A stretch of 64,000 nt of DNA. It comes from Cristatella mucedo (lineage: Eukaryota; Bryozoa; Phylactolaemata; Cristatellidae). How positions within the stretch are numbered: position 1 is the stretch's first letter; every line of letters starts with the position of its first letter. The stretch covers positions 2,609,001 through 2,673,000 of the forward strand of contig WPIO01000004.1 in the NCBI GenBank assembly GCA_009760855.2, in the 5' to 3' direction. This document shows, in pieces, positions 4,086-60,375 of this stretch. The notes beneath the pieces were generated by a model. That model saw only the letters and a program-made list of their open reading frames with translations, had not been told where the DNA came from and did not search any database. Made by a program: the position numbers and the translations under genes.

Positions 4086-4250
4086 TAGGTAAGGGGGTTG
4101 CTTTTACGACCTTGTGGGTTCGAATCTTGAGGCGAGCAATCCATTATTGCCGCTGCATGCGGTGGTGATAGCCGTAAAAGCTATTCTGTCGCTATATAAA
4201 AGAGGCTGTTAATCAGCTAGTATTTGCTAGTATAGTTAAGCAGCCATTAT
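4068..4250 (+). mobile_element. tRNA-derived SINE, copy 1
   Basis: The head has an A-box-like TGGCACGCTAGGTAAGG and, about 35 bp on, a B box GGTTCGAATCT, the internal RNA polymerase III promoter of tRNA-derived SINEs. The body then reads GCGGTGGTGATAGCCGTAAA and ends GAGGCTGTTAATCAGCTAGT. The same body recurs at 6716, 7475 (reverse), 21795 (reverse), 35925 and 36525 (reverse). This copy lies between the Tigger remnant and a LINE. Confidence 0.8.
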
Positions 4251-6715: not shown

Positions 6716-6897
6716 GTGATGGTGAGCCATGATGGCCCACTAGGTAAGGCGGTTGCTTTTCACGACCTCGGTCCCGATGTCTTGGGTTCTAATCCTGCGG
6801 TGGGCGATCCTTTATCGCCATTGCAAGCGGTGGTGATAGCCTTAAAGGCTCTTTTGTCGCTATACAAAAGAGGCTGTTAAATCAGCTAGTATTTAAT
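6716..6897 (+). mobile_element. tRNA-derived SINE, copy 2
   Basis: It has the A-box-like TGGCCCACTAGGTAAGG, the B box GGTTCTAATCC, then the family body and the 3' end GAGGCTGTTAAATCAGCTAG with an AT-rich tail. It interrupts LINE copy 2 right after the AAFDTTDH motif. The LINE resumes with AAAGTACTTCTTGAG, and AAAGTA stands on both sides (near 6701 and 6918), a probable target-site duplication. Confidence 0.82.
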
Positions 6898-8220: not shown

Positions 8221-9395
8221 ATCTGCTACTGCCATGCATAACTAACGTAATAAATATGTCATTAGCTTCAGGTCATGTCCCTGCACCTTTCAAAAAGGCT
8301 GGAGTCGGGCCACTACACACGAAAGCTTCACTACACAAAGAAAACTCGAGCAACTTCAGCCCAGTCTCCCTTCTGCCATTCCTGTCAAATACAGTGGAAC
8401 GAATCGTGATAAACCACCGGATCTCATATATTGAAACTTCAAATCTTATTAGCAGGTTCCAGTCTCATTTTAGAGCTAATCAATCCACAGAGTTAGCATT
8501 GCTTCGGGTGTACAACGACTTTCTTAGGAATGCAGACATAGGTAGAGAACCTCTGCTTGTTTTGCTTGATCTATCGGCAGCTTTTGATACTATCGATCAC
8601 CAAGTTATTCTTGAGTGCCTTTCATCTCGTCTGGGCAAAACTGGCACGACGCTGCAATGGTTCCGGTCATATCTCTGTGGGAGACTCCAGATTATCAATG
8701 TGAATGGACAAAGATCACCCGAGGAACCTCTGAAATATGGGGTACCTAGGGAATCTGTGCTTGGTCCCGTTCTTTGCATGGTTTAGACTCTCCCTCTTGC
8801 CGACGTGATTGCCAAACCCAATCTAGGCCTTCAATTTTATGCGGCCGACGCTCAGTTGTACCTTTGCCTTGAACCCTCCCAGCCCTCGAGTAAGTCGAAT
8901 TCGCTCAACTGCCTTGGTGCAGGTATTGATGACATCCGCATATGGATGGCAGCAAACTTTCTTAAATTGAATGATGATAAAACCAACGTGATAGCTATAG
9001 GTAAACAAAGTGTAATTCAGAAACCGGAATGGCTAATGCTTAAAATCGGTTCTGCCTGCATAAATCCTGGTGAATCCACACAAACTCAAAGTGTCATGTT
9101 CCAAAGTGACTTTTCATTAGGCAACCATATCAGCAGTCAAGTTTGCCTAATTTCAGTTACATAACATTGTTATAGGTCGGCTAGTTTGGACAGGGATGCC
9201 ACATCTGAATTGGTTCATGCATTCGTGTCATCCCGTCTTGACTTCCGTATCTCACTTCTTGCTGGTCAACCGGCCTGTGCACTCAGGTGATTACAGCTGG
9301 TGCACAACTCTGCAGCTAGGCTTCTCTGTCGTGAATGTCGCAGTTTCCACATCACACCACTTCTCGCCGACCTGCACTGGCTCCCGGTCAAGCAA
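8221..9395 (+). mobile_element. L2-like LINE family A copy 3, part b (reverse transcriptase)
   Basis: This is the longest RT frame of family A in the plus orientation. It includes MSLASGHVPAPFKKA, SLLPFLSNTVERIV, LISRFQSHFRANQSTELALL, LLVLLDLSAAFDTIDHQVIL and EPLKYGVPRESVLGP. A stop follows, then LGLQFYAADAQLYLCLEPSQ. The catalytic box reads YAAD instead of YADD, so the first palm aspartate is lost. It goes on to HITPLLADLHWLPVKQ at 9395, where a reverse LINE is inserted. The rest of this element resumes at 10919. Confidence 0.88.
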
Positions 9396-10918
9396 TAATA
9401 ATAATAATAATAATAATAATGCACTTGATAAAGCACCCTCAGAGAACTCAATCTCTTCCTGGGCGCTTTACATTTGCTGCAAAGGGAAACGTGATTGAAT
9501 CGTGAGTAATATTATGCTTGATAAACAACATGAACAACGTGGTTAGGGGTGAAATGCACAGGGTAAGCATGCAAATGTGGTTAGTGGCAGCATGGACAGT
9601 GTCAGCACCCATAAGCACATGAAGGACAAATCACAGGGACCCACTAAATGCTGTCCTAAATAGGTGTTTTTAAGTTCTTTTTAAACGTGGTCAAGTCAGG
9701 GGATGTTCTGATGCATGTCGGGAGGGAGTTCCAGGCTTTGGAAGCATACGAACTAAATGCATGGTCTCCAAAAGATTTGAGGTTTGTACGAGGTAGTGAT
9801 AAACGGTTGGATTCCGAAAAGCAGGTGGTACGATGCTTGGCCCGGGGGAGTAGATCTGAGAGATAGGCTGGAGCCAAACAATGAAGTGACCTAAAAGTGA
9901 GCGACAAAAATTTGAAGTCGATTCGTTGCTTGACTAGTAGCTAGTGCAGGTCGGCGTGAAGTGGTGTGATGTTTACTGCGACGCTCACGACAGACAAGCC
10001 TAGCTGCAGAGTTTTGCACAAGCTGTAATCGCCTGATTGCACATGCCGGTAGGCCATCAAGCAGCGAGTTACATAAGTCAAGTCGGGATGTCACAAATGC
10101 ATGGACCAACTTGGACGTGGTATCCTTATCTAAACAAGCCCGAATTTTAGCAATGTTATGTAGCTAAAGTATGCAGATTTGACTGTGGAGCTAATGTGGT
10201 CGTCAAACAAGAGGTCACTTTGGAACATGACACATAGATTTCGAGCTGATTCGACAGGAGATATGCTGGCAGAGCCAATTTTGAGCGTCAGCCTTTCCCA
10301 TTTCTGAATCACGCTGGGTTTGCCCATAACTAGTGAGTCAATTTTATCGTTTAGTTTTAGAAAATTTGCTGCCATCCATGTACGGATGTCATCAATACAT
10401 GCAACAAGTGAGTTGAAAGAATTCGAGGTGGTCGAAGGCTGGGAGGGATTAAAGCAAAGGTACAACTGAGTGTCATCCGCATAGAAGTGAAAGCCTAGAC
10501 GGTGCTTGGCAATCGCATCAGCAAGAGGGAGAGTATAAACCGTGAAAAGAACCGGACCTAGCAGGGAGCCCTGAGGTACCCCATACTTCAGAGGTACCTC
10601 AGATGATCTTTGTCCATTCACGTCAATACTCTGGAGTCTCCCACTGAGATAGGACCTGAACCATTGTAGAGCAATGCCAGTTATGCCCTAGCAAAATGAG
10701 AGGCTCTCTAGAAGAACTCTGTGATCGATAGTATCAAAAGCTGCCGAAAGATCAAGCAAAACAAGCACAGACACTCCACCTATGTCTGCATTCCTAAATA
10801 GGTCGCTGTACACCCTAAGCAATACTGACTCTGTGGAGTGACAGCTCTAAAGCCGAACTGGAACTTACTAACAAGGTTTGAAGTTTCATTATATGAGTTC
10901 AGCTGGTCTGCCACGACC
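9396..10918 (-). mobile_element. L2-like LINE family A copy 4 (reverse), inserted into copy 3
   Basis: It begins at its 3' end with (AAT)n at 9396 and the reversed stem-loop. On the minus strand it reads back through the C-terminal tail (9656-9907: SLTFRSLHCLAPAYLSDLLP, SKAWNSLPTC) and the palm (10130-10621: [45 protein letters not shown]). It ends in the RT start near 10905. The catalytic YADD is kept, but frames are broken. CAAGCAA at 9389-9395 and CAAGTAA at its other end are an almost perfect 7-bp target duplication, and the interrupted host resumes cleanly. Confidence 0.9.
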
Positions 10919-12764: not shown

Positions 12765-13744
12765 TCAGGCAAGCGAAGCTAAATGACACCCAGTGCTAGG
12801 TAGCTGGGTCACAGCATCATCATCAGCTGCTGCTGCTACAGCGTACACGGTCACATTCCTAGTCTGCTTGCTTGTTGCGTCGTGGCCGAGCACCGCTAGT
12901 ACGGTCCCCTGCCCTCTGCCTAGTGACAGCCACACAGGCCAATGCAGTCCGTAGCTGCTGTAGGAGAGGACACAATGCTGCATCTTCCCACTCTCTGCAC
13001 TGAGCACCTTCATGCAGTCCTTGCTCCTCCCGTCCTCCTGCCCTCGCACAGCCACAAACAGGAGGCCGCTTGCAGCACAGACGCCTCGAGCTAGCTCTCC
13101 ACTGCTCAGCTCGTGTCTCCACTGTCCGTCACCTCGGTGACCGTAGCTGTCCACAACGTTCAGCTCTCTGCCGTCGTCCAGCTTCACCTTGCTGTGGCTC
13201 GTAGTGACCAGAGCAGCAGCAGTGAGAGCCAAGCTCCATATGTTATACTCGTGCTTCCTCCGGTACAGCAGCCGCCCCGTGCTCAGCTGCAGCAGCTGCA
13301 GCTCTGGGCCAGGCTCACACTTCTTGTAATTAAATTGGTCACTAAGTCTGGCCTCAGTCACAGCTAGGAGGTCACCGAGCACGGACAGCTTCCACGGAGG
13401 TGACAGCAGCTCAGCGACGCGTCTTTCCTCGAACCACTGCGAGTCCCCTGCAGCAGCAGAGCAGCGTCTGAGCAGCAGGACGAGCCGTGAGCAGAGTAGG
13501 CCTACAGCAGCACGGCCGTCCTGAAGAGACCGAACTGAAGTGATCCATTCCTTCTCTCGGTCGCTCTGCTTTTTAGGTCGCCAGACGCTCAGCTTCCTGC
13601 CGCTCTGGCTGTATTCCTTCAGGCCGTGCTCCCAGGCAGCAAGCAGCAGATGCCCCTCTGACGTCACAGACAGGTCGATGCACTCGTCAAGCATATGGAA
13701 GCTGCTGGAGGCACGGCTGAAGTGCAGCACTGGCTGCTCCTCTG
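12765..13744 (-). CDS. TRIM-like gene, last exon: beta-propeller-like C-terminal domain
   Basis: About 325 residues are open to a stop at 12765. Repeating strand-turn units of 40-50 residues (for example DLSVTSEGHLLLAAWEHGLKEY, then ISVRS-type units ending in LVLLLRR, then NIWSLALTAAALVTTS) suggest an NHL/WD-like propeller. That is the usual C-terminal ligand domain of many invertebrate TRIM proteins. I infer this from repeat style, not from a family match. The acceptor is chosen at TTGTAG ending at 13745. It gives phase 1, the phase of the upstream donor at 18347. There is no stop or frameshift in the exon. A decayed copy lies at 23345-24300. Confidence 0.7.
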
Positions 13745-18523: not shown

Positions 18524-19602
18524 CTGTGGCCAACTTCGGAGTTCCCATCCACGAGGAGATAAGTTTGCTTAAGTCATCGGGCAGGGAGCCACTCAGCTCC
18601 ACAAGCTCGCCAGCATCCGGTATCACCCCGAATCCATCCATCTGCTTGACCAGCACCTCGAGACGTGACTGTAAGGCCACCTGCTGGTCCAACAAATCAG
18701 GTTCACCGGCCGAGTCTGTCAGGCTGCTGGCATATTCGGATGCATGCTGCAGTGACTGGTGCAGCTGCTCGGCCAGGCTCTGCAGGGCAGCAGCAATGTC
18801 CTCGAGCTGGTCATAGCAGTCCTGAATCTTCAAAGCTTTTGCTCACAGTGTCCACCACATACTTCTTAATTATCAGCTCGTCCAGATGAACTGCACGAGC
18901 TGATTGGACGTCGTTTACCAGATTCCTGGGCTTGAGTAGCTGCTCAGACTTACTAAGCAAATGCTCATACAGACGGTGTATTCTCTCTCTTGCGTCCTTC
19001 AAGAGACTTTCGGCTATTGATCCTTTTAGGTGCTGTAGCCCCGGGTGTCCTAAACCCTCGCACTGCCTGGCACAGTCGGTGCATTTGGCTTTCTTGCAGT
19101 CGATGCACAGCAGATCCAGTGGCTTCGAGTGGTGCCTGCACTGCTGCTGCACTTCGGCTTTCAGCAGTTCGTTCCAACTCGTGATTTGCTCGAGCAAAAC
19201 GGTCGCATGACACCTGTTGTATCGGTTATGGCCAGGTAAGCAGGTTGCACACAAGGATCTCTGGCACTGCATGCACCAGACGTCTGCTAGCTTATTTGGG
19301 CTGCCATCCAATCCGCAGACACTGCACTTGTCAGCATCTTGCAGGGCTGTGAAACGTCTCACCAACTCAGCGATGAAACCATTGTGATGCTCTGTTAAAC
19401 TGATGTCGGTGAGTATGTCGCAAGCAGGGCATCGTAAGCTGTTTGAGCCCTCTGCTATGGCAGCACGATCAGCACAGCTACTGCAGCAGCTGTGCAGGCA
19501 TCGAAGCAGCAGTGGCTGCTCTGCGATTTGTTTGCAGACGATGCAAGATAACAGGTCTTTGTTTATCGATGCTAGTCAGTACACTGGAAGCTCTTGTGCC
19601 AT
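18524..19602 (-). pseudogene. TRIM-like gene, first coding exon: RING, B-boxes, coiled coil (with stop and frameshift)
   Basis: TRIM proteins are usually RING-type E3 ubiquitin ligases or RNA/signalling scaffolds in the cytoplasm. In order, the exon shows a RING (19560-19410): CIVC, then CLHSCCSSC, then CPAC. Next is a B-box-1-like set (CSVC, CMQC, CATC; about 19330-19240), then a B-box 2 (CRHHSKPLDLLCIDCKKAKC with later His) at about 19150-19040. A helical, Leu-rich coiled coil (RIHRLYEHLLSKSEQLLK, DQLEDIAAALQSLAEQL) runs to a donor GCCACAG|GTAGCT at 18523. Two defects are visible. The ATG at 19602 (MAQELPVY) meets TGA at 19576-19578, eight codons in. A one-base shift near 18831-18841 (AAAAGCTTTG) splits the coiled coil into two frames. 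Either this is a recently dead gene, or these are assembly errors, or the start is supplied by an upstream exon through another acceptor. Preserved introns argue against a processed copy. Confidence 0.75.
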
Positions 19603-28968: not shown

Positions 28969-29834
28969 AGGTGGTTGAGTTTGTTTTCTCTTATTCAGGC
29001 GCTGGAAGGTCTTAATCTAACAACGGGACCATGAATTGGTGACGTGCTAAGCCGGCCTGATTATGCCTGAAATTTATTATTAACATCTCCTAAATTATCA
29101 TGGCTAGGGACCGATTGTGCGATAATCCAAGGCAAAGGCAGCAAAAAACCGAAGCCCTGTCATAAGTTTTCACGTGTCCTCCAGGAGTTGGCCTTAGTGT
29201 TAGAGCTTATCTGAGCTCTAGGCCATGAAACAGATATGAGCCCTAAAAGAGCTGTTTGTATGGCTCATACCTTGATGCAATGGTGGTGCACCTTCAAGTC
29301 GTTAGCTGCACTTACAAGGCTTCCAGGGCTTCACCGGTATTGTTCGAGTGTCGCCAGAGACTAGCACTACTACGATTGCTGTCTCTGTGGCTGAGTTAGA
29401 GCGTAACATAGTAGCAGCAACACTTCATTTGTAGCACAATTGAGATTCTTCTGATGAAAATCACACAAGGCCTTACACGATTGTAAGCTTGCATAGTTAT
29501 ATAGAGGCTAGATAGAGGCTAGACGGGTAAAACATGTAACGCTTATGACTCCGTTTACTGCAAAGATGAGATGCAGTAATTAATCTTGGTATTTGTTTCT
29601 GAACGCAAAATCATGTAATAAACGACTACCAAAACACAAAAGCCAAAATTAAATGTTGAATGAAACCGTGCTGCAGACGAGACGGCTCTGTCAATTCAGG
29701 CAGACATGATACGTCTTTGCAAAGATCCACAAATGACACGTTCAGCTATTTTTTGAGCCCAAGCTCTGGATAAATGACAGGTAAATAACGAGCTTAATAC
29801 CTCCTTCTTTCCATCCGAACAATTTACTGTCAGT

Positions 29835-30110
29835 TTGGGCGTTTAACCTTGGGCAATCTGTGGCAGTCGACGGCAGATTCCGAGACAATGCTGGAACAAC
29901 ATGATTTTCTGACTCAATTACATCCATTACATACATAGCTGCTGGGAGAATATACAATTTTCCTTGTGTATTACAGTTCGATATATTATTAGCGGAACCG
30001 GCATCCTTTCAGCTAATCTTGAACGTACATTCGAGGACGATGTGGGGCAATCGACGGCAAACGCCTGAGAAAGTATTGCAATCTATTCGTCGTAAGTGTA
30101 CACACTCAAC
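29835..30110 (-). repeat. satellite block 1 (about two reversed monomers)
   Basis: Two reversed copies of the repeat core are visible, GGCAATCTGTGGCAGTCGAC at about 29853 and GGCAATCGACGGCAAACGCC at about 30042. They are about 190 bp apart. They begin where similarity to the first gene copy ends (about 29825). The 400 bp to the next block hold only weak traces of the repeat. Confidence 0.65.
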
Positions 30111-30499
30111 TCAAGTCGTGAGACAGCGGTATGCTTGAAGCGATCGTATCAGGTGAGGGAGACCTTGCTGTTAGCTGGGAAAACATGCCATTGGCCCTCC
30201 ACAGCCAAATGTGCTGAGCATTAGACTTCCGTTAAGCCCTAAAACATCAGGGGTAGGCGAGAAGCTAGATTAATTAGTAAAACTTCAGCTTCGCATAGCT
30301 GTAGTGATGTTTAGTTGAAAATAATAGATATTTATTTATAGTGATCTACCTGAGTGCTCCGGAGGCAGTTAACAAAAGTGCGAACTTTACTGGCCACAAG
30401 TTTTCAGGAGTGTGAACTTTCAGCTTGCAGATCATTGCCAACCCATTAAGGACTTGTCAGCCGGACAAAAAAGCATTTTATATGAAATATATTACATTA

Positions 30500-33400
30500 G
30501 GAATAACTTTACACTTTTTAAAAGTGCAATGTAATGCCAGATGTATACTTTAGTTTTGCACAGCGTATGTGCAGTCGATTTTTGACGGACTGCTGAAAAT
30601 TGCTGCATTTGCATGGGCCATTGCCATTGATTGCATTGCAGTGAACGAGAGCTAACATTACTGATGGCATTTCCTGGGTGCACCAACATTTGAGTAAACA
30701 CGAACGAGAAATCTAAATAGGAGCGTCACCTAGCAGCAATCAGTCTACCTAAAGTTGATTTTTTATAGATTTCCGTATTTTCTCAGGCCTTGCCGTCGAT
30801 TGCCACACATTGTCCTCGAATGTACGTTCGAGAATAGTTGAAAAATGTACTTGCACTTTTTATACGGCGCACTGCAAAACGCACAAAAATTAGATCTTCT
30901 CCCACCAGCTTTGCTTGTAATTGTAACAGACAATCATAGATAGCTGCACAGTCTCGGGCAAATGCCGTTGATTGCAACGGATTGCCCAAGGTTGAATGCA
31001 AGAAATGACAGTATGTGCGCTTAGAGTGAGCGTTACGTGGTAGGGCAAATGCAAATTCAAACGGCCGACTTCCGGCAAATTTGAAGGTGATTGAAGTAGA
31101 GACTGGGCCATTGCCGTCGATTGTCGAGCATTGCCCTCGATTGTGCATTTGTCGGTTGTTTAAAAGGATGTGGCTGCACTTTTAATGCAGTGTAGTGCAA
31201 TACGCATGAACAGTTGGAGCTTCTCTCAGCAACTGTCGGTCCATATGTAACCGACCGCTATGGATTGAGGCATTTCTCCTGGCCATTGCCGTCGATTGCC
31301 GTGCATTGCCATAGATTTAGCGCTCACAACGGGTGAAGATTATGCACTAACGCAGGTAAATATTACGTGGAATGAAAATTTTAATTTATTGCAGCCAATC
31401 TAGTCAATTTTTCACGGATTTCCCTATCGGCCCCTACCATTGCTGTGAATTGCCGTGCATTGCTGACGGTTAACGAGCAAAGCAATTTAAAAACCCCACG
31501 TTTTTAATTTGGAAGTGGCGGAATTTTATATGTAATTACACTTGGCTTTTGGCACTGCCGATTTCTTGTCAATTGGCTGCGAAGTGGGGCGTTGGCCCGG
31601 GCAATTGCTGTCGATTGCCATTTATTGCTCGCGATTGTACGTGCCAGATTGGTTGAAAGGATGTGATTTCACTTTAAAAACAGTGGGCTGTGACAGATTG
31701 GATAAATTTGATCTTGGCCCGGTCAATTTCTAATGATTGTGATGGATTATGATGGATTGCAGTATTTGCCCGAGCCATTTCCGTCGATTGCCAAGCATTG
31801 CCCAAGATTGAACGGTCAGAACTGGTTGAAAGTATATTCGTGCCAGTTAGATGCTACGTGTAATGAAAATTGGAGCTTGATGCAGCCCATTTCTAATCGA
31901 TTCGCCACGGATTGTGGTATTGGTCCCTGCCATTGCTATCGATTGCCGTGCATTGTTGACAATTAGCGTGCCAAATAGCTTGAAAGTCTTAGGAATTTAC
32001 TTTTGGCACAAAGAAATGTGAAATTCGATGACAATTTGCACGTCGTGCAGAAAACTTGTGGTCGAACTGCCACGGATTGTGGTGGAGTGCTTCTTCGAGA
32101 CAAGCCGTTACCGTAGATTGCCATGCATTGCCCTAGGTTGTGCGATTACAATCGCCTAAAATGATTTGATTGACTTAACCAGTGTGCTTTGTAACATGCA
32201 TTCAAAATTTTAGCATTGGGAGACCAATGTCAGGGCATTTTGTATCGGATTGCTGTAGATTGCAGTATTGGCCCGGGCCCTTGCAGTCAATTGCAGTGCA
32301 TTGCTGCCGAATGGTCAAAGTAATTGTAGTAAAATTGTGCGATTACACAAAACCAAAAATTAGACCAACATGCAATCACTATTAGAGCCTAAAGTGTGCG
32401 CATTCTGGCGTTTTTGGGCTTGTTGAGGTGAATAGACTACTAGCACGACAGTTACAGTCAATTGTAGTGTATTGCTGCAGAATGGTGGAGGAAATTACAA
32501 TGAAGTTATGTGAGTACACAATAACCGAAATGCAGAGCAGAGTGAAATCATAACTAGATCTTATAGTGTAAGCGTTCTGTTCGCTGTTCGGCCGATTGCA
32601 GTGGATTTCGGTGGATTGCAATACCGGACCGGGCCGTTGCAGTCGAGTGCAGTTCTTTGCATGAGAATGCGTGGACACAACGGAGCGACATTTTGTGGGT
32701 GCACTTTGAATTGAGTCTAGTCCTCTATGAAATGTCAATTAGAGCTTCGCGATGGTGATTTGAGGACGATTTACAGTGGAATAAAGTAGATTGCTGTACT
32801 TTCCTAGGTCATTTCAGGCGATGGCCACCCATTGTCACAGTGCGAGGATGCACAATTTTTTATTTTACGTTGCGGTACACACAGCATAGTGTATTTTGAT
32901 ATGCAAGAAAAACTGGAGTTCGTTGCAATCTATTTCGATTTTTTATGCTGTGGATTCGGAGGATTGAAGTGGATCGTGGTATAGGCCAGGGGTACTGCAG
33001 TCGATTGCAGCACATTGCTAGAGAACAGACGGGCCAAAACAAGTGAAATTTTTTAGTGCAATTGTCGCAGAGTGTGCTCTCATATGAAATCAAAACAGCA
33101 GCTTTAAGAACAGGCTTTCTTTCGTTACACAGTGGATTGCACTAGATTGCAGTATTGGCTTGGGCCACTGCAATATTATTTCAGTGGACTTCGTGAGAAA
33201 GCCTGAGCGGAATGGCTTGCAATTTTCTGGATACAATTGACGTGTAGCGCAGTTTGATATTCCAAATTAAAAAAAGCAGCGGTGAGCTCATTTGAGGTGG
33301 ACGTGACGGGAACTATCACGGATTGCGGTGGATTGCTGTGGATAGTGGTACTATTGTCTGGCGTCGAAGCTCACTTGCACATGTGGGTGTGTGCTCAGCG

Positions 33401-33545
33401 ACATGAAATTTGGTGGACTGATAAAATCAAAACTGTACCACAATATCTGCACAAAATCTGAGCTTGCCGACGCTAATGTCTGGTTGATGTTAGCTTAATT
33501 AGAGTAGATTAAGGTGGATTGTGGTAATTCGTCTAACCCGGAGCA
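30500..33545 (+). repeat. satellite block 2: ~17 degenerate tandem monomers of ~150-190 bp
   Basis: The core, seen at about 30612, 30785, 30955, 31103, 31281, 31433, 31600, 31772, 31928, 32100, 32274, 32446, 32630, 32807, 32988, 33160 and 33350, resembles CCATTGCCGTCGATTGCCGT followed by GCATTGCC. The rest of the monomer often holds a GGTTGAAAG-like word, a TGCACTTTTA-like word, AAAATTGGAGCTTG and GATTGTGGTGGATTGC. Spacing varies between 148 and 190 bp. Monomers differ by many changes, so the array is old. Open frames inside it are artefacts. Confidence 0.88.
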
Positions 33546-33709
33546 CTCCACCCTGCTGACGGGCAGGCTGGGTACCACATAATGAAGCATTTTAGTCAGG
33601 CGGTAGCAGCTACCTAAGCGGATTTAATTGCAGCGAGTCTGCTGTGGTCGCGTGACCCGCTAGTCCTGCAATGTAGAACTTTCTGCCTCTGCGTCGGCCT
33701 TCATGCAGG

Positions 33710-35924: not shown

Positions 35925-36100
35925 TGTTTCCGTGTCGTCGCGTGTGTGCTGCTAACCTCGGTTCCGAGGTCGTGGGTTCGATTCCTGCGGTGGGCGATCC
36001 TTTATCGCCACTGCAAGCGGTGGTGATAACCGTAAAGGCTCTTCTGTCGCTATACAAAAAGAGGCTGTTTGATCAGCTAGGATTTATCGTGTTTATTTAC
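35925..36100 (+). mobile_element. tRNA-derived SINE, copy 5 (best preserved promoter)
   Basis: The B box GGTTCGATTCC is perfect. The body (GGGCGATCCTTTATCGCCAC, GGTGATAACCGTAAAGGCTC) and the 3' end GAGGCTGTTTGATCAGCTAG match the other copies. The A-box side is partly replaced by the GC-rich island (GTGTGTGCTGCTAACCTCGG). Confidence 0.8.
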
Positions 36101-37795: not shown

Positions 37796-38085
37796 TGTAA
37801 TAATAATAATACTAATAATGTACTTGATAAAGCGCCCTCAGAGAACTTAATCTCTTTCTAGGCGCTTTACATTTGCTGCAAAGGGAAATGCAATTGGATG
37901 GTAAGTAAAATCATGCTTGAAAAATAAACAAAATGAATAACATGGTTAGGGGTTACATGCACAGGGTCAGCATGCAAATGTGGTTAGTGGCAGCATGCAC
38001 AGTGTCAGCACGCATAAGCACAGGAAGGACACATCACAGGGACCCACTAAATGCTGTCCTAAATAGGTGTGTTTTTAAGTTTAAT
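37796..38085 (-). mobile_element. family A LINE 3' end (reverse half of an inverted pair)
   Basis: It starts (TAA)n at 37796. The reversed stem-loop and 3' UTR follow, to ACCCACTAAATGCTGTCCTA and AATAGGTGTGTTTTTAAGTT. It faces the plus-strand end at 38175. Confidence 0.9.
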
Positions 38086-38174
38086 GTAAAGCTTAAAACT
38101 GAGAACAAGTGATTTTAGCCAATTTTGCGGCCTCAATTTCTGTCATTCTTGGAAATGGAAGCATTGAACTGGTT

Positions 38175-38475
38175 TGTGACCTGACCACATTTAAAAGGAA
38201 CCTAAAAACACACCTATTTAGGACAGCATTTAGTGGGTCCATGTGATTCGTCCTTCGTGTGCTTATGCGTGCTGACACTGTGCATGCTGCCACTAACCAC
38301 ATTTGCATGCTGAACCTGTGCATGTCGCCCTTAACCATGTTATTCATTTTGTTTGTTTTTCAAGCATGATTTTGCTTACCATTCAATTGCATTTCCCTTT
38401 GCAGCCAATGAAAAGCGCCTAGAAAGAGATTAAGTTCTCTGAAGGCGCTTAATCAAGTGCATTATTATTATTATT
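38175..38475 (+). mobile_element. family A LINE 3' end (forward half of an inverted pair)
   Basis: It runs from TGACCTGACCACATTTAAAA (LTTFKRNLKTHLFRTAFSGS) through the 3' UTR and stem-loop to (ATT)n at 38461. With 37796-38085 it makes an inverted repeat of about 290 bp per arm around a 90-bp centre. Confidence 0.9.
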
Positions 38476-38779
38476 CTTACCTAGCTTATTGTAATTTCCT
38501 GCTCTTGGCCATTGAGGCGTACGCCTGTTGAATGCTATTTCTGTATTCATCACAGCTCACCATTGCTGCACGTGCGCTGTTCGGGCGATGCTGTCTCGAC
38601 CACGTTGCATCACAAGGGACTTGAGGTGTCCTGAGCCCAAATTAATTCATTTGGTGAAGACTATGTCGTTGCATCGAGGTGTATGCAAAGCATGCATGAG
38701 GATCGCACGAATCCCAGTCCTGCCGATCTGGACGAACAACTAGTCGGAACAGGTCGCAGCTCTCTCTGCCTGCTCTGTG

Positions 38780-40714: not shown

Positions 40715-40867
40715 ACAGATGGATAAAGACAGAGAAACAGAGGTACAAAGAGAGCTCGAGAGAAGGAGAGAGTAAGAAAGCAGAGCAGAGTGTATCTGGA
40801 GCGGTAGACACTCCTACAATTCCAGCTACACAAAGATCTACGGCAACGGCTCGGCTCGAAGCAGCAG

Positions 40868-42225
40868 TTTACTACAATCCCTGGCTAATCGACCACAAAT
40901 TATCTGCACAAAGTAACAATTGTCACACCATTTTACATTTAATTTGTGCTAAAAGTGAAGTCGTAGAAATCTAAAGCTATTTTTGCATGCTAGTTGTCAA
41001 CAATGCACGGCAGCCGACAGCAATCCCAGGGACCAATACCACAATCTGTGGCAAATCGACGAGAAATCGGCTGCACCAAGCTCCAGTTGTCTTTCCAAAT
41101 AACATCTCATTGCACTCGCACATACTTTCAACCTGCTCTGACCGTTCAAGTTTAGGGATTGCAGGGCAATTGACGATAATGACCCGGGCGAATACGGCAA
41201 TCCATCATGATCCATGGCAAATCACGTCAAAGTGACTGCGTCAAGGTCAAGTTTATCTTACGTCACAGCGAACTGTGTTAGTATAATCGCATCAATTCAA
41301 CCAATCGAGGACGTGCTAGCGCGAGCAATGAATGACAGTCGCTATCAATGGCCCGGGCCAATACCCCGATTCATGACAAATCGACGAGAAATTGGCAGTG
41401 CAAAGCCCCAATTGTCATTACGTGTAATATTCCGCTGCCTACAAAGTGAAATCTTGGCATTTTCCAGATGCTTCGCTCGTTAACTGTCAGCAATGTACTG
41501 CAATCCACAGCAATGGTCGATGCCTATAGCTCAATCCGCGGAAAATTGATAAAATTGGCTGCAAGAAACTGCAAATCTCATTCCGCATAGCATGTAACTG
41601 TGCGCTCGCATAATTTTCAACGATTGTGAGCTTTCAGTCAATGGCAACCCACGGTAATCGACCTCAATGGCCCGGAAAATACGCCAATTAATAATGGTCC
41701 ATTACAAATGAACTAAAAATTGCTGGGAGAAGCTCACAATTTTCTTTCGTATTGCACTACACTTCATTAGAAGTGCAGCCACATTTTTTTAAGCAACTGA
41801 CATAGGCTGAATCGACGGCTATTGAAGGAAATCGACGGCATGGGCCTAGCTTCGACCGAAATCTGCTTCAGATTGACTAGACGTTGGCTGTTCGAAGCTC
41901 CAGTTATGATGCTAAATAGTGTTCACTATGAGTGCTTGTACTTTTAACCCATTGGGCGAGTCAATCACTGGTAATGAATGACGATCGAAGGCAATGGCCC
42001 GAGAAAATACACCAGCATGTGCAGCTCTGTTACAATTACACACAAAGCAGGTGTAGAACATCTAGTGGCTTTGCTTAGTACAGGGCACTGCATTGGAGGT
42101 ACAGCCGCATCATTTCAAGAAATTGCAAACGTGCAATTGAGGGCGATGCACTGCGCTTGACGGCAAGGGCCAGAGAAAATACTGCAATCCATAACGCCAC
42201 AAATAGACAGGCAGTTGCTAGGCGA
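40868..42225 (-). repeat. satellite block 3: ~8 degenerate monomers, reversed relative to block 2
   Basis: Reversed cores at about 41022, 41180, 41340, 41502, 41660, 41827, 41980 and 42150 (for example CGCTATCAATGGCCCGGGCC and AATCGACGGCATGGGCC), 153-170 bp apart. The same monomer body is seen reversed, such as CCAATTGTCATTACGTGTAA. The identity of the family with block 2 is clear; orientation is opposite. Confidence 0.85.
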
Positions 42226-59104: not shown

Positions 59105-60290
59105 GTATCACCATCTGTAACTCCACAAAGTCATATGGACCATGTGTGTGTTACACAGGACAGTTTTGTATAACGCACTCACAGCCTAAGCGGCTTTCGG
59201 TACGCATTCGGTAGCCAACAGACTTTGTCTCACGCAACAAAGAGAAAGTGTGAAGCATAGCAGAGTCAGGAGAGCAGTTGAAGTAGTGAGTAGCATGAAA
59301 GTAGCACCTAAGGACCGCTGAAAAGGATGTGCCATAGTCGGCAGTAGGAGAGTAGTTGTCGTTGCGTAAGAATTGTGGAAGCAAGTTCCACAGTCAAAGA
59401 CCTGCAGAGCTAAAGCTTCTGTCGCCAACGGTCTTTAAGTGGAGGAATGGCACAGCTAATTTATTGTCCACACAGGACCTGAGGCCGCGAACAGGCTAAA
59501 ACGGATGCAGCAATTCAGCTAGGTACGAAGGAGCCAAGCCGTGGCGGGCTTGTGGGTCAGTGTAAGAACTTTGCTCTGTATCCGTTGGTCAACCGGCATC
59601 CATCCTAGCTCTTTTAGGAAAGGAGACACGTGCTCAAACTTCTGGGACTTAAAAAAGACTAGTCTTGCAGCCATATTCATAGTCAGGTGCAGTGGCCTAG
59701 TTGCTTTGTTTGGTAGCCCAGCCAAAAGGAAATCACAATAATCACGCCGAGTCAGAACCAAAGAGCTAGTTAAATTTTTGGCAAGCCACTGTGGAAGACA
59801 GCTCCTAATCTTGGATAGGGATCGGACGTGATTGCTAGCTGTAGAGGCAGTCTTCTGAATGAAGCTTTTAAAACTGAGGCAGTTGTCGAAAATGACAACT
59901 AAATTTCGAGCACATGGTGATGGTCGCACAACAGCATCACCTATTAGAAGAGCAAAGCCTTTTAATCTGGCCACACGCTTAGGGTGTCCTATGAGCAGCA
60001 GTTCGGTTTTATCATCATTTAATTTCACGAAGTTTTCCGACATCCAGGATCGAATATCGGCAAAGTAAGCATTCAGTTTCTCAGTTGCCGCTGCAGATTC
60101 CGACGGTTTGAATGACAATAACAGCTGAGTATCGTCAGCATAAAAGGGATTTCCTATTTCATGGGCCTTAATCACTTTTCCCAGAGGTTGCGTATAAATG
60201 GAGAACAGCAAGGAACCGAGTACAGACCCTTGAGGGACTCCACAGTTGACCCTTCTCGATTGCGAGACCTGGCCCAATATCTGATATAAT
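59105..60290 (-). mobile_element. LINE family B copy 2 (RT, C terminus and 3' UTR)
   Basis: The longest open LINE frame in the window runs from about 60290 to 59519 on the minus strand: [119 protein letters not shown]. The YADD catalytic box is intact. The 3' UTR goes on to about 59105. It is 5'-truncated, with the first catalytic block missing, so it cannot be active alone. Confidence 0.88.
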
Positions 60291-60375
60291 GATCTGATAC
60301 AATATCTGATATATTGCACAGATATTGCAATATCTGATATATTGCAATATCTGATACATTGCACAGATACGCTTG
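60283..60375. repeat. minisatellite, ~17-bp unit, at the 5' edge of LINE B
   Basis: AATATCTGATATATTGC and close variants repeat about five times and extend the LINE frame by chance. It begins exactly where LINE similarity ends. Confidence 0.8.

What the first reader, a model, noticed from the sequence alone, without database searches (positions are those of the whole stretch)
30500..33545. Nucleosome-length satellite with ATTG phased at 10 bp
About 17 degenerate tandem monomers, 148-190 bp apart, each carry a core of about 70 bp. In that core the word ATTG recurs at steps of 10, 8, 13, 10, 10 and 10 bp (seen for example at 31905-31960 and 32248-32300). The 10-bp step is one DNA helix turn and the monomer is about one nucleosome. 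The phase is kept although the rest of the monomer has drifted, which suggests the spacing, not the exact sequence, has been retained. Function (nucleosome positioning, centromere-like or heterochromatin role) is inference.
Basis: partly seen in the sequence, partly recalled or inferred. Interest (0 to 1): 0.75.

Follow-up and report, generated by a model that had tools for sequence, protein, structure and literature searches.

The report
Transposon arm built from nucleosome-length repeats
The supposed nucleosome-length satellite is one arm of a palindromic mobile element scattered through this animal-like genome, and its 10-base rhythm is best explained by a short repeat that gains and loses whole 10-base units rather than by a centromere or chromatin signal.

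Summary
In detail: 72 ATTG (31 expected) and 24 pairs exactly 10 bp apart (0.3 expected). But the array is the right arm (30765-33539) of a non-autonomous foldback-type DNA transposon, not a satellite. Genomic copies align to it collinearly over 2.6-3.4 kb at 76-80%. Minus-then-plus arms occur in 13 of 26 loci; one copy of 6.5 kb has both arms. Outer ends share GGGTTCGACGAATTACC. In 14 two-ended copies the flanks match over 9 bp, 76 of 126 positions against 35.9 permuted (z 6.8): a 9-bp target duplication, as in Mutator/Foldback elements, though 5 of 14 show none clearly. The window also holds a left-arm stub (29825-30086) and a truncated second copy (42194-40836). The 10-bp phase behaves as a minisatellite: among core indels of 3 bp or more, 33 of 59 are exactly 10 or 20 bp. 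Core and linker evolve alike; ATTG is slightly better conserved. The cores share 10-bp units and register with the element's own end, which suggests repeated transposase-binding sites, as in Galileo (inference). No transposase with these ends was found.

The parts
29825..30086 (-). stub of the left arm of the element: monomers 3 and 2, inverted, cut at 29825
   Evidence: 72.6% to 31013-30765 inverted; best partners of A02 and A03 at 78% and 77%; same arrangement in L030, L031, L032
30087..30764 (.). centre of the element, including a divergent first monomer (core about 30579-30663)
   Evidence: window 29828-30718 aligns as one block in L030 and 29827-30616 in L031; 30116-30549 shared with 5 other loci
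   Evidence: collinear 76-80% matches elsewhere in the genome with shared limits; monomer alignment
33390..33539 (+). terminal domain of the arm, ending GTAATTCGTCTAACCC; element boundary at about 33539
   Evidence: 19 ends aligned, similarity stops after GAACC(C); the window end scores 147.3 bits
31736..31822 (+). example of a monomer core with ATTG at 10-bp steps
40836..42194 (-). second copy of the element: one arm only, monomers 2-10, outer terminus missing
   Evidence: 72% over 1366 bp collinear with 30763-32118; B04-B09 pair one to one with A04-A09 at 72-79%; no terminus hit there

Best explanation
The array is one long terminal inverted repeat of a non-autonomous foldback-type (Mutator/Foldback-like) DNA transposon. 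Shown: dispersed collinear copies, palindromic layout (arm of about 2.8 kb, centre of about 0.7 kb, arm), a common outer end GGGTTCGACGAATTACC, and 9-bp target duplications as a group. Also shown: each arm is a tandem array of ~172-bp monomers whose ~80-bp core is built of 10-bp units (roughly ATTGCNGTNN), and such units are gained and lost in place between copies, which keeps the helical phase. Inferred: the 10-bp units are transposase contact sites. The element's own end carries two of them (GTGGATTGCGGTGGATTGCGGTAATTCGTCGAACCC), and each monomer core is probably a duplicated, decayed relative of that end. An arm with many in-phase sites would help a transposase supplied in trans to find and pair the ends. 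The copies compared are 85-94% identical to their majority, so the family looks old rather than freshly active.
For: Collinear copies with shared limits. A04-A09 each match B04-B09 best (72-79%), other monomers at most 68%. Palindromes: minus-then-plus runs in 13 of 26 loci, three of them with a single plus monomer; full-length 6508-bp copy L035 with 16 minus and 14 plus monomers. Within-element arm identity is 94.7% in L009 and 93.6% in L020, 71-86% in most other comparisons, against mostly 75-85% between loci. Terminus: 19 ends aligned; 756 matches with at most 1 mismatch against 88 for the control. TSD: 14 pairs, 76/126 at 9 bp against 35.9 +/- 5.9 permuted, lengths 3-8 and 10-12 z below 1.5; scan over lengths and offsets, z 6.9 against a permutation maximum of 4.3 in 2000. 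Terminus profile: 93 partial hits inside arrays, 9 outside, arrays being 29% of the sequence; 32 of 57 placed hits at monomer positions 18-22, 16 more about 10 bp to either side. Unit gain and loss: core indels of exactly 10 bp 28, of 20 bp 5, of 9 or 11 bp together 4. MULE transposase domains exist in this genome: 59 matches.
Against: No copy seen with these ends encodes a transposase; the one MULE copy fetched (L048) has other ends. Five of 14 two-ended copies match at 4/9 or fewer flank bases, among them the full-length L035 (1/9). B02 and B03 match A02 and A03 at only 58-59%, no better than other monomers. The terminus consensus against the monomer consensus is weak by pairwise alignment (p 0.01). 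The profile hits are partial and many have poor E-values, so the likeness of end and core may be no more than the shared 10-bp unit. Binding by a transposase is untested.
Confidence: 0.9

Rival explanations
1. A nucleosome-length satellite whose 10-bp phase positions nucleosomes or marks centromeric or silent chromatin.
For: Core AT-dinucleotide power at 10 bp is 1.00 against 0.33 in shuffles (maximum 0.505 of 100), 0.42 in linkers and at most 0.543 in 200 random samples of the window; mean spacing 171.5 bp (n 329); spacing steps of about 10 bp; ATTG columns slightly better conserved than other core columns (0.941 and 0.913, p 0.001).
Against: The copies studied are dispersed elements with sharp ends and 9-bp duplications. 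The longest one-direction run in 26 loci is 19 monomers, and that locus has two minus-strand termini at the run (two elements); the others are at most 16. Monomers are not homogenised. The periodicity is expected of any 10-bp tandem repeat with AT-rich and GC-rich halves. Only 26 loci were looked at, so long arrays elsewhere are not excluded.
Confidence: 0.05
2. The 10-bp phase is held by purifying selection on spacing rather than by unit slippage.
For: Phase concentration near 10 bp of the 15 window spacings (R 0.56, P 0.011) and of 15 per-position medians (P 0.017); small ATTG conservation excess.
Against: Core deletions are about as frequent as linker deletions, and many are themselves 10-bp units. 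Between arms A and B/C, consensus positions (fraction 0.6 or more) are kept at 0.885 for ATTG, 0.872 for other core and 0.880 for linker; ATTG against other core gives p 0.07, 0.24, 0.71 and 0.19 at four thresholds. By letter only A is significant in the 19-arm set (p 0.012; T 0.14, G 0.33). The spacings are not independent, since some monomers are related.
Confidence: 0.12
3. A segmental inverted duplication of one old satellite block, not a mobile element.
For: In the window alone A and B form one inverted repeat of 1366 bp, and C77 (L042/L043) shows a flank copied in inverted orientation.
Against: Nineteen aligned ends stop at the same base in different flanks, the end recurs genome-wide, and 9-bp duplications are in excess.
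Confidence: 0.02

Closest known systems
Tetris (foldback element of Drosophila virilis; PMC4079207, sections 3, 9 part 1 and 16 part 1 read)
   Same: Non-autonomous, long inverted repeats with an outer domain and tandem repeats of about 220 bp, variable middle, 8-10 bp duplications, no transposase found, 37-bp stretch shared between outer domain and tandem repeat.
   Different: Tetris had 3 structurally complete copies, arms up to 1735 bp, and repeats 87-94% alike that expanded into satellites. Here there are about 16 monomers per arm, within one element at most 68% alike, in fixed order, with a second 10-bp level of repetition; no satellite expansion was seen in 26 loci.
Galileo (P superfamily; PMC3688188, abstract and passages read)
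   Same: Foldback-like long inverted repeats with internal tandem repeats, in which extra binding sites for the transposase THAP domain were found and tested by gel shift.
   Different: P-type transposase; shorter target duplication (7 bp, recalled, not from a call). Binding not tested here.
Tm1 of root-knot nematodes (Mutator/Phantom; PMC3169594, passages read)
   Same: Composite inverted repeats of variable length with ~14-bp tandem motifs; 45 of 53 complete copies with 8-10 bp, most commonly 9-bp, target duplications.
   Different: The largest part of each inverted repeat is an array of ~14-bp motifs, with asymmetric 7-bp end motifs; some copies encode a Phantom-type transposase.
Muta1 and other Aedes MULEs (PMC5225508, passages read)
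   Same: 8-9 bp duplications; 10 of 12 long-TIR families have 9-15 bp subterminal tandem repeats.
   Different: TIRs of 145 bp (Muta1) and 151 bp (Muta5); no nucleosome-length second level in the passages seen; transposase known.

Membership tests
[quoted passage not shown]
   minus-then-plus runs in 13 of 26 loci; self-inverted arms from about 0.2 kb (L013) to over 2 kb (L012, L035) in 8 two-ended copies
Foldback-type transposon (structural class) | defined ends and target-site duplication | tested here: met
   19 aligned ends; 9-bp excess in 14 pairs; 8 of 14 pairs match at 6 or more of 9, 5 of 14 at 4 or fewer
Mutator (MULE) superfamily | 8-10 bp, mostly 9-bp, target duplication | tested here: met
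   only k=9 in register stands out, z 6.8
Mutator (MULE) superfamily | moved by a MULE-type transposase encoded in a copy with the same ends | tested here: inconclusive
   59 MULE matches in the genome; the one fetched with flanks (L048) has other ends. By eye, none of the 100 listed termini (of 756; the list stops at contig C133) lies within 30 kb of a MULE match; only 19 of the 59 MULE matches are on contigs up to C133
Satellite DNA | long homogenised head-to-tail arrays without fixed ends or order | tested here: not met
   runs of at most 19 monomers in 26 loci, fixed order across copies
Centromeric or nucleosome-positioning repeat | CENP-A enrichment or MNase phasing | not testable with these tools
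   no chromatin data at hand

The most novel reading that the evidence does not exclude
Each arm is a self-phasing landing strip: dozens of 10-bp transposase contact units lie on one face of the helix in nucleosome-length blocks. Because units are often gained and lost as whole helical turns, the strip can change length without losing phase. Transposase would coat it as an ordered multimer, or read it from a positioned nucleosome.
Probability: 0.25. Interest if true: 0.65.

Novelty: new member of a known kind. Interest (0 to 1): 0.45.

Why it matters
It shows how a transposon arm can look exactly like a nucleosomal satellite. It also gives a large natural set of copies (hundreds of near-intact ends by pattern count) in which the growth of repeat-bearing inverted repeats can be followed at two levels, 10 bp and about 172 bp. 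Foldback arms have been tied to satellite birth (Tetris) and chromosome inversions (Galileo), and what their inner repeats do is largely open; here the repeat and the element's own end share units, so a binding test would be simple once a transposase is found.

Tried and rejected
Rejected: satellite (fixed order, ends, TSD); inverted segmental duplication (the same end recurs in different flanks); Rfam RNA family (none at gathering score in the window); coding repeat (no frame spans the array, the longest in it being 132 aa); prokaryote or viral relatives by exact core pattern (0 in genome contigs, 0 in viral contigs). A first reading that ATTG words are specially kept between arms A and B (0.835 and 0.921 against 0.72) was dropped because choosing intact words biases the count. 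A fairer test gave no clear difference, and a 19-arm test a small one. The 2.9-kb insert in L020 and the long frames beside the arrays in L023 and L017 look like reverse-transcriptase-type retrotransposon pieces, judged by eye from the translations, not a transposase. The paper searches listed no family that I could match to this one; Repbase and Dfam were not available, so 'new family' is unproven. The species was not identified.

Selection: the first 20 loci were picked from the first places listed (100 of 4147), so they favour copies with intact ATTG triples; six more were picked from the matches. L012 and L013 overlap by 3.8 kb. In the TSD test two alternative left ends (L012 at 1547, L042 at 504) were left out. 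The 9-bp register was first seen by eye and then tested on all 14 pairs; one search scans lengths and offsets. Spacings outside 100-260 bp were dropped. The 19-arm alignment holds two arms each from L009 and L012. In one search five of the six 10-bp deletions counted as linker lie at 33502-33504, in the ATTG units of the terminal domain.

Full report
What was checked. The region holds 72 ATTG words (30.7 expected) and 24 pairs exactly 10 bp apart (0.32 expected; maximum 4 in 300 shuffles); distances 20, 31, 41 and 51 bp are also in excess. Base autocorrelation is highest at lags 10, 165 and 328.

What surrounds it. A profile of the cores found further pieces on the minus strand: two hits in 30086-29833 and a run in 42194-40836. 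Blast of the region against the window showed 30763-32118 and 42194-40836 to be collinear inverted copies (72%, 1366 bp), and 30765-31013 to match 30086-29825 inverted (72.6%). In a joint alignment each of A04 to A09 has its best partner in B04 to B09 (72-79%), and A02 and A03 in C02 and C03 (77-78%); other pairs are at most 68% alike. B02 and B03, against this, match A02 and A03 at only 58-59%. On the whole the monomers diverged before the block was copied.

Genome. The window lies in a 572-Mb assembly. ATTGN6ATTGN6ATTG occurs 4147 times against 212 for its reversed control. Blast with 29800-33600 gave 106 matches from 40 scored of 1685 candidates; the longest other than the window itself run from window 30153-30890 to about 33495-33547 at 77-80%. 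In the 26 loci fetched monomer runs in one direction reach 16, and 19 in L012, where two minus-strand termini show that two elements adjoin; minus-then-plus pairs occur in 13 of 26, three of them with a single plus monomer.

Anatomy. The outer limit is sharp: in 19 aligned ends, similarity stops after GTAATTCGTCGAACC(C). This 15-mer with at most one mismatch occurs 756 times against 88 for the control. In two-ended copies both outer ends carry it, facing outward; they were found by that mark. L035 is a 6508-bp copy with 16 minus and 14 plus monomers and a centre. L030 and L031 have one full arm and the centre but lack the other arm; L029 has centre and arm. The window copy keeps the right arm, the centre and only two monomers of the left arm.

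Insertion mark. For 14 two-ended copies, the 9 bases outside GGGTTCG...CGAACCC match at 76 of 126 positions (permuted mean 35.9, sd 5.9, 0 of 2000); lengths 3-8 and 10-12 give z below 1.5. A scan of lengths and boundary offsets peaks in the same register (z 6.9; largest permuted 4.3); its top combination is that register extended by one base on the element side. Matches per copy are 7, 2, 7, 4, 8, 4, 4, 1, 7, 6, 6, 7, 8 and 5 of 9. So five copies, the full-length L035 among them, show no clear duplication; recombination between copies or age could explain that, but it was not tested.

The 10-bp phase. With ATTG masked, cores still match themselves best at lag 10 (0.334 against 0.20-0.30 at the other lags from 4 to 21), so more than the ATTG word is repeated. 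Among 19 arms the core shows 112 indels: 42 of 1 bp, 28 of exactly 10 bp, 5 of 20 bp, and only 4 of 9 or 11 bp; of the 59 that are 3 bp or longer, 33 are 10 or 20 bp. Most of the 10- and 20-bp core inserts are GATTGCGGTG-like units. In the linker 7 of 149 are 10 bp and 10 are 9 bp. Core-to-core spacing (n 329, mean 171.5, sd 14.3) often differs between copies at the same position by about 10 bp, for example 155/165 or 176/185/195, with some values between. Thus the phase is carried largely by gain and loss of whole units. Constraint: majority fractions are 0.941 for ATTG, 0.913 for other core and 0.913 for linker outside CpG. The ATTG excess is small but significant overall (p 0.001 and 0.0003), and by letter only for A. 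In the A against B/C comparison (eight monomer pairs) ATTG and other core did not differ clearly (p 0.07 to 0.71 at four thresholds). I report both.

Why the core is there. The terminal domain contains two 10-bp units next to the cleavage end. A profile of that domain, true ends left out, hits arrays 93 times and other sequence 9 times, with arrays being 29% of the letters; of 57 hits that could be placed, 32 fall at monomer positions 18-22 and 16 about 10 bp to either side. The hits are partial and many are weak, and the plain consensus alignment gives only p 0.01. The element thus appears to end within what would be a monomer core, and each core is a likely relative of the end. [quoted passage not shown] Tetris shows a shared stretch between its outer domain and its 220-bp repeats, and its authors suggest a similar role (PMC4079207, sections read). 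The same function here is inference.

What mobilised it. MULE transposase domains occur in this genome (59 matches). The one fetched with flanks (L048) has its own inverted repeats of about 120 bp with ATGTCC-type subrepeats and not these ends. The Mutator assignment therefore rests on the 9-bp duplication and the foldback build, as it did for Tetris; Tm1 (PMC3169594, passages) has the same commonest duplication length and a Phantom-type transposase.

Verdict. A real pattern with a different cause: a dispersed foldback transposon family, with a two-level repeat that makes its arm look like a nucleosomal satellite.

Noticed in passing
window 37801-38479: Two 290-bp copies of what looks like a retrotransposon 3' tail lie tail to tail as a 92% palindrome with 99 bp between the arms; about ten or more further copies of this piece lie in the window.
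   Followed up: partly
window 8256-8786, 10130-10621, 59519-60364: Reverse-transcriptase fragments (RVT_1), apparently of non-LTR retrotransposons, with many related pieces in the window at about 64-91% nucleotide identity.
   Followed up: no
window 35955-36086, 6765-6895, 4114-4225: Short repeat, 84-90% alike, with a tRNA-like GGTTCGATTCC box (recalled motif); possibly a SINE. No tRNA scan was run.
   Followed up: no
window 18811-19365: B-box zinc-finger frame pointing to an animal-like host; another frame, 12765-13730, has no Pfam family at E 0.001.
   Followed up: no
L042 and L043 (G000:C77:6131080-6135000): A second terminus of the family has a 30-bp flank that is the reverse complement of the right flank at 29 of 30 bases, as if the flank had been copied in inverted orientation, perhaps during hairpin repair.
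   Followed up: no
L020 4506-7374: A retrotransposon-like piece interrupts the plus arm, the two sides meeting at the same window base 31756: a nested insertion that gives relative age.
   Followed up: partly
L048 2494-4631: MULE transposase copy with ~120-bp inverted repeats containing short ATGTCC-type tandem repeats: at least one other MULE of this genome also carries subterminal repeats.
   Followed up: partly
two-ended copies, e.g. C111:13648352-13650835 and C44:1474892-1481380: Two-ended copies range from about 2.5 to 6.5 kb, probably by unequal loss of the inner part of either arm.
   Followed up: partly
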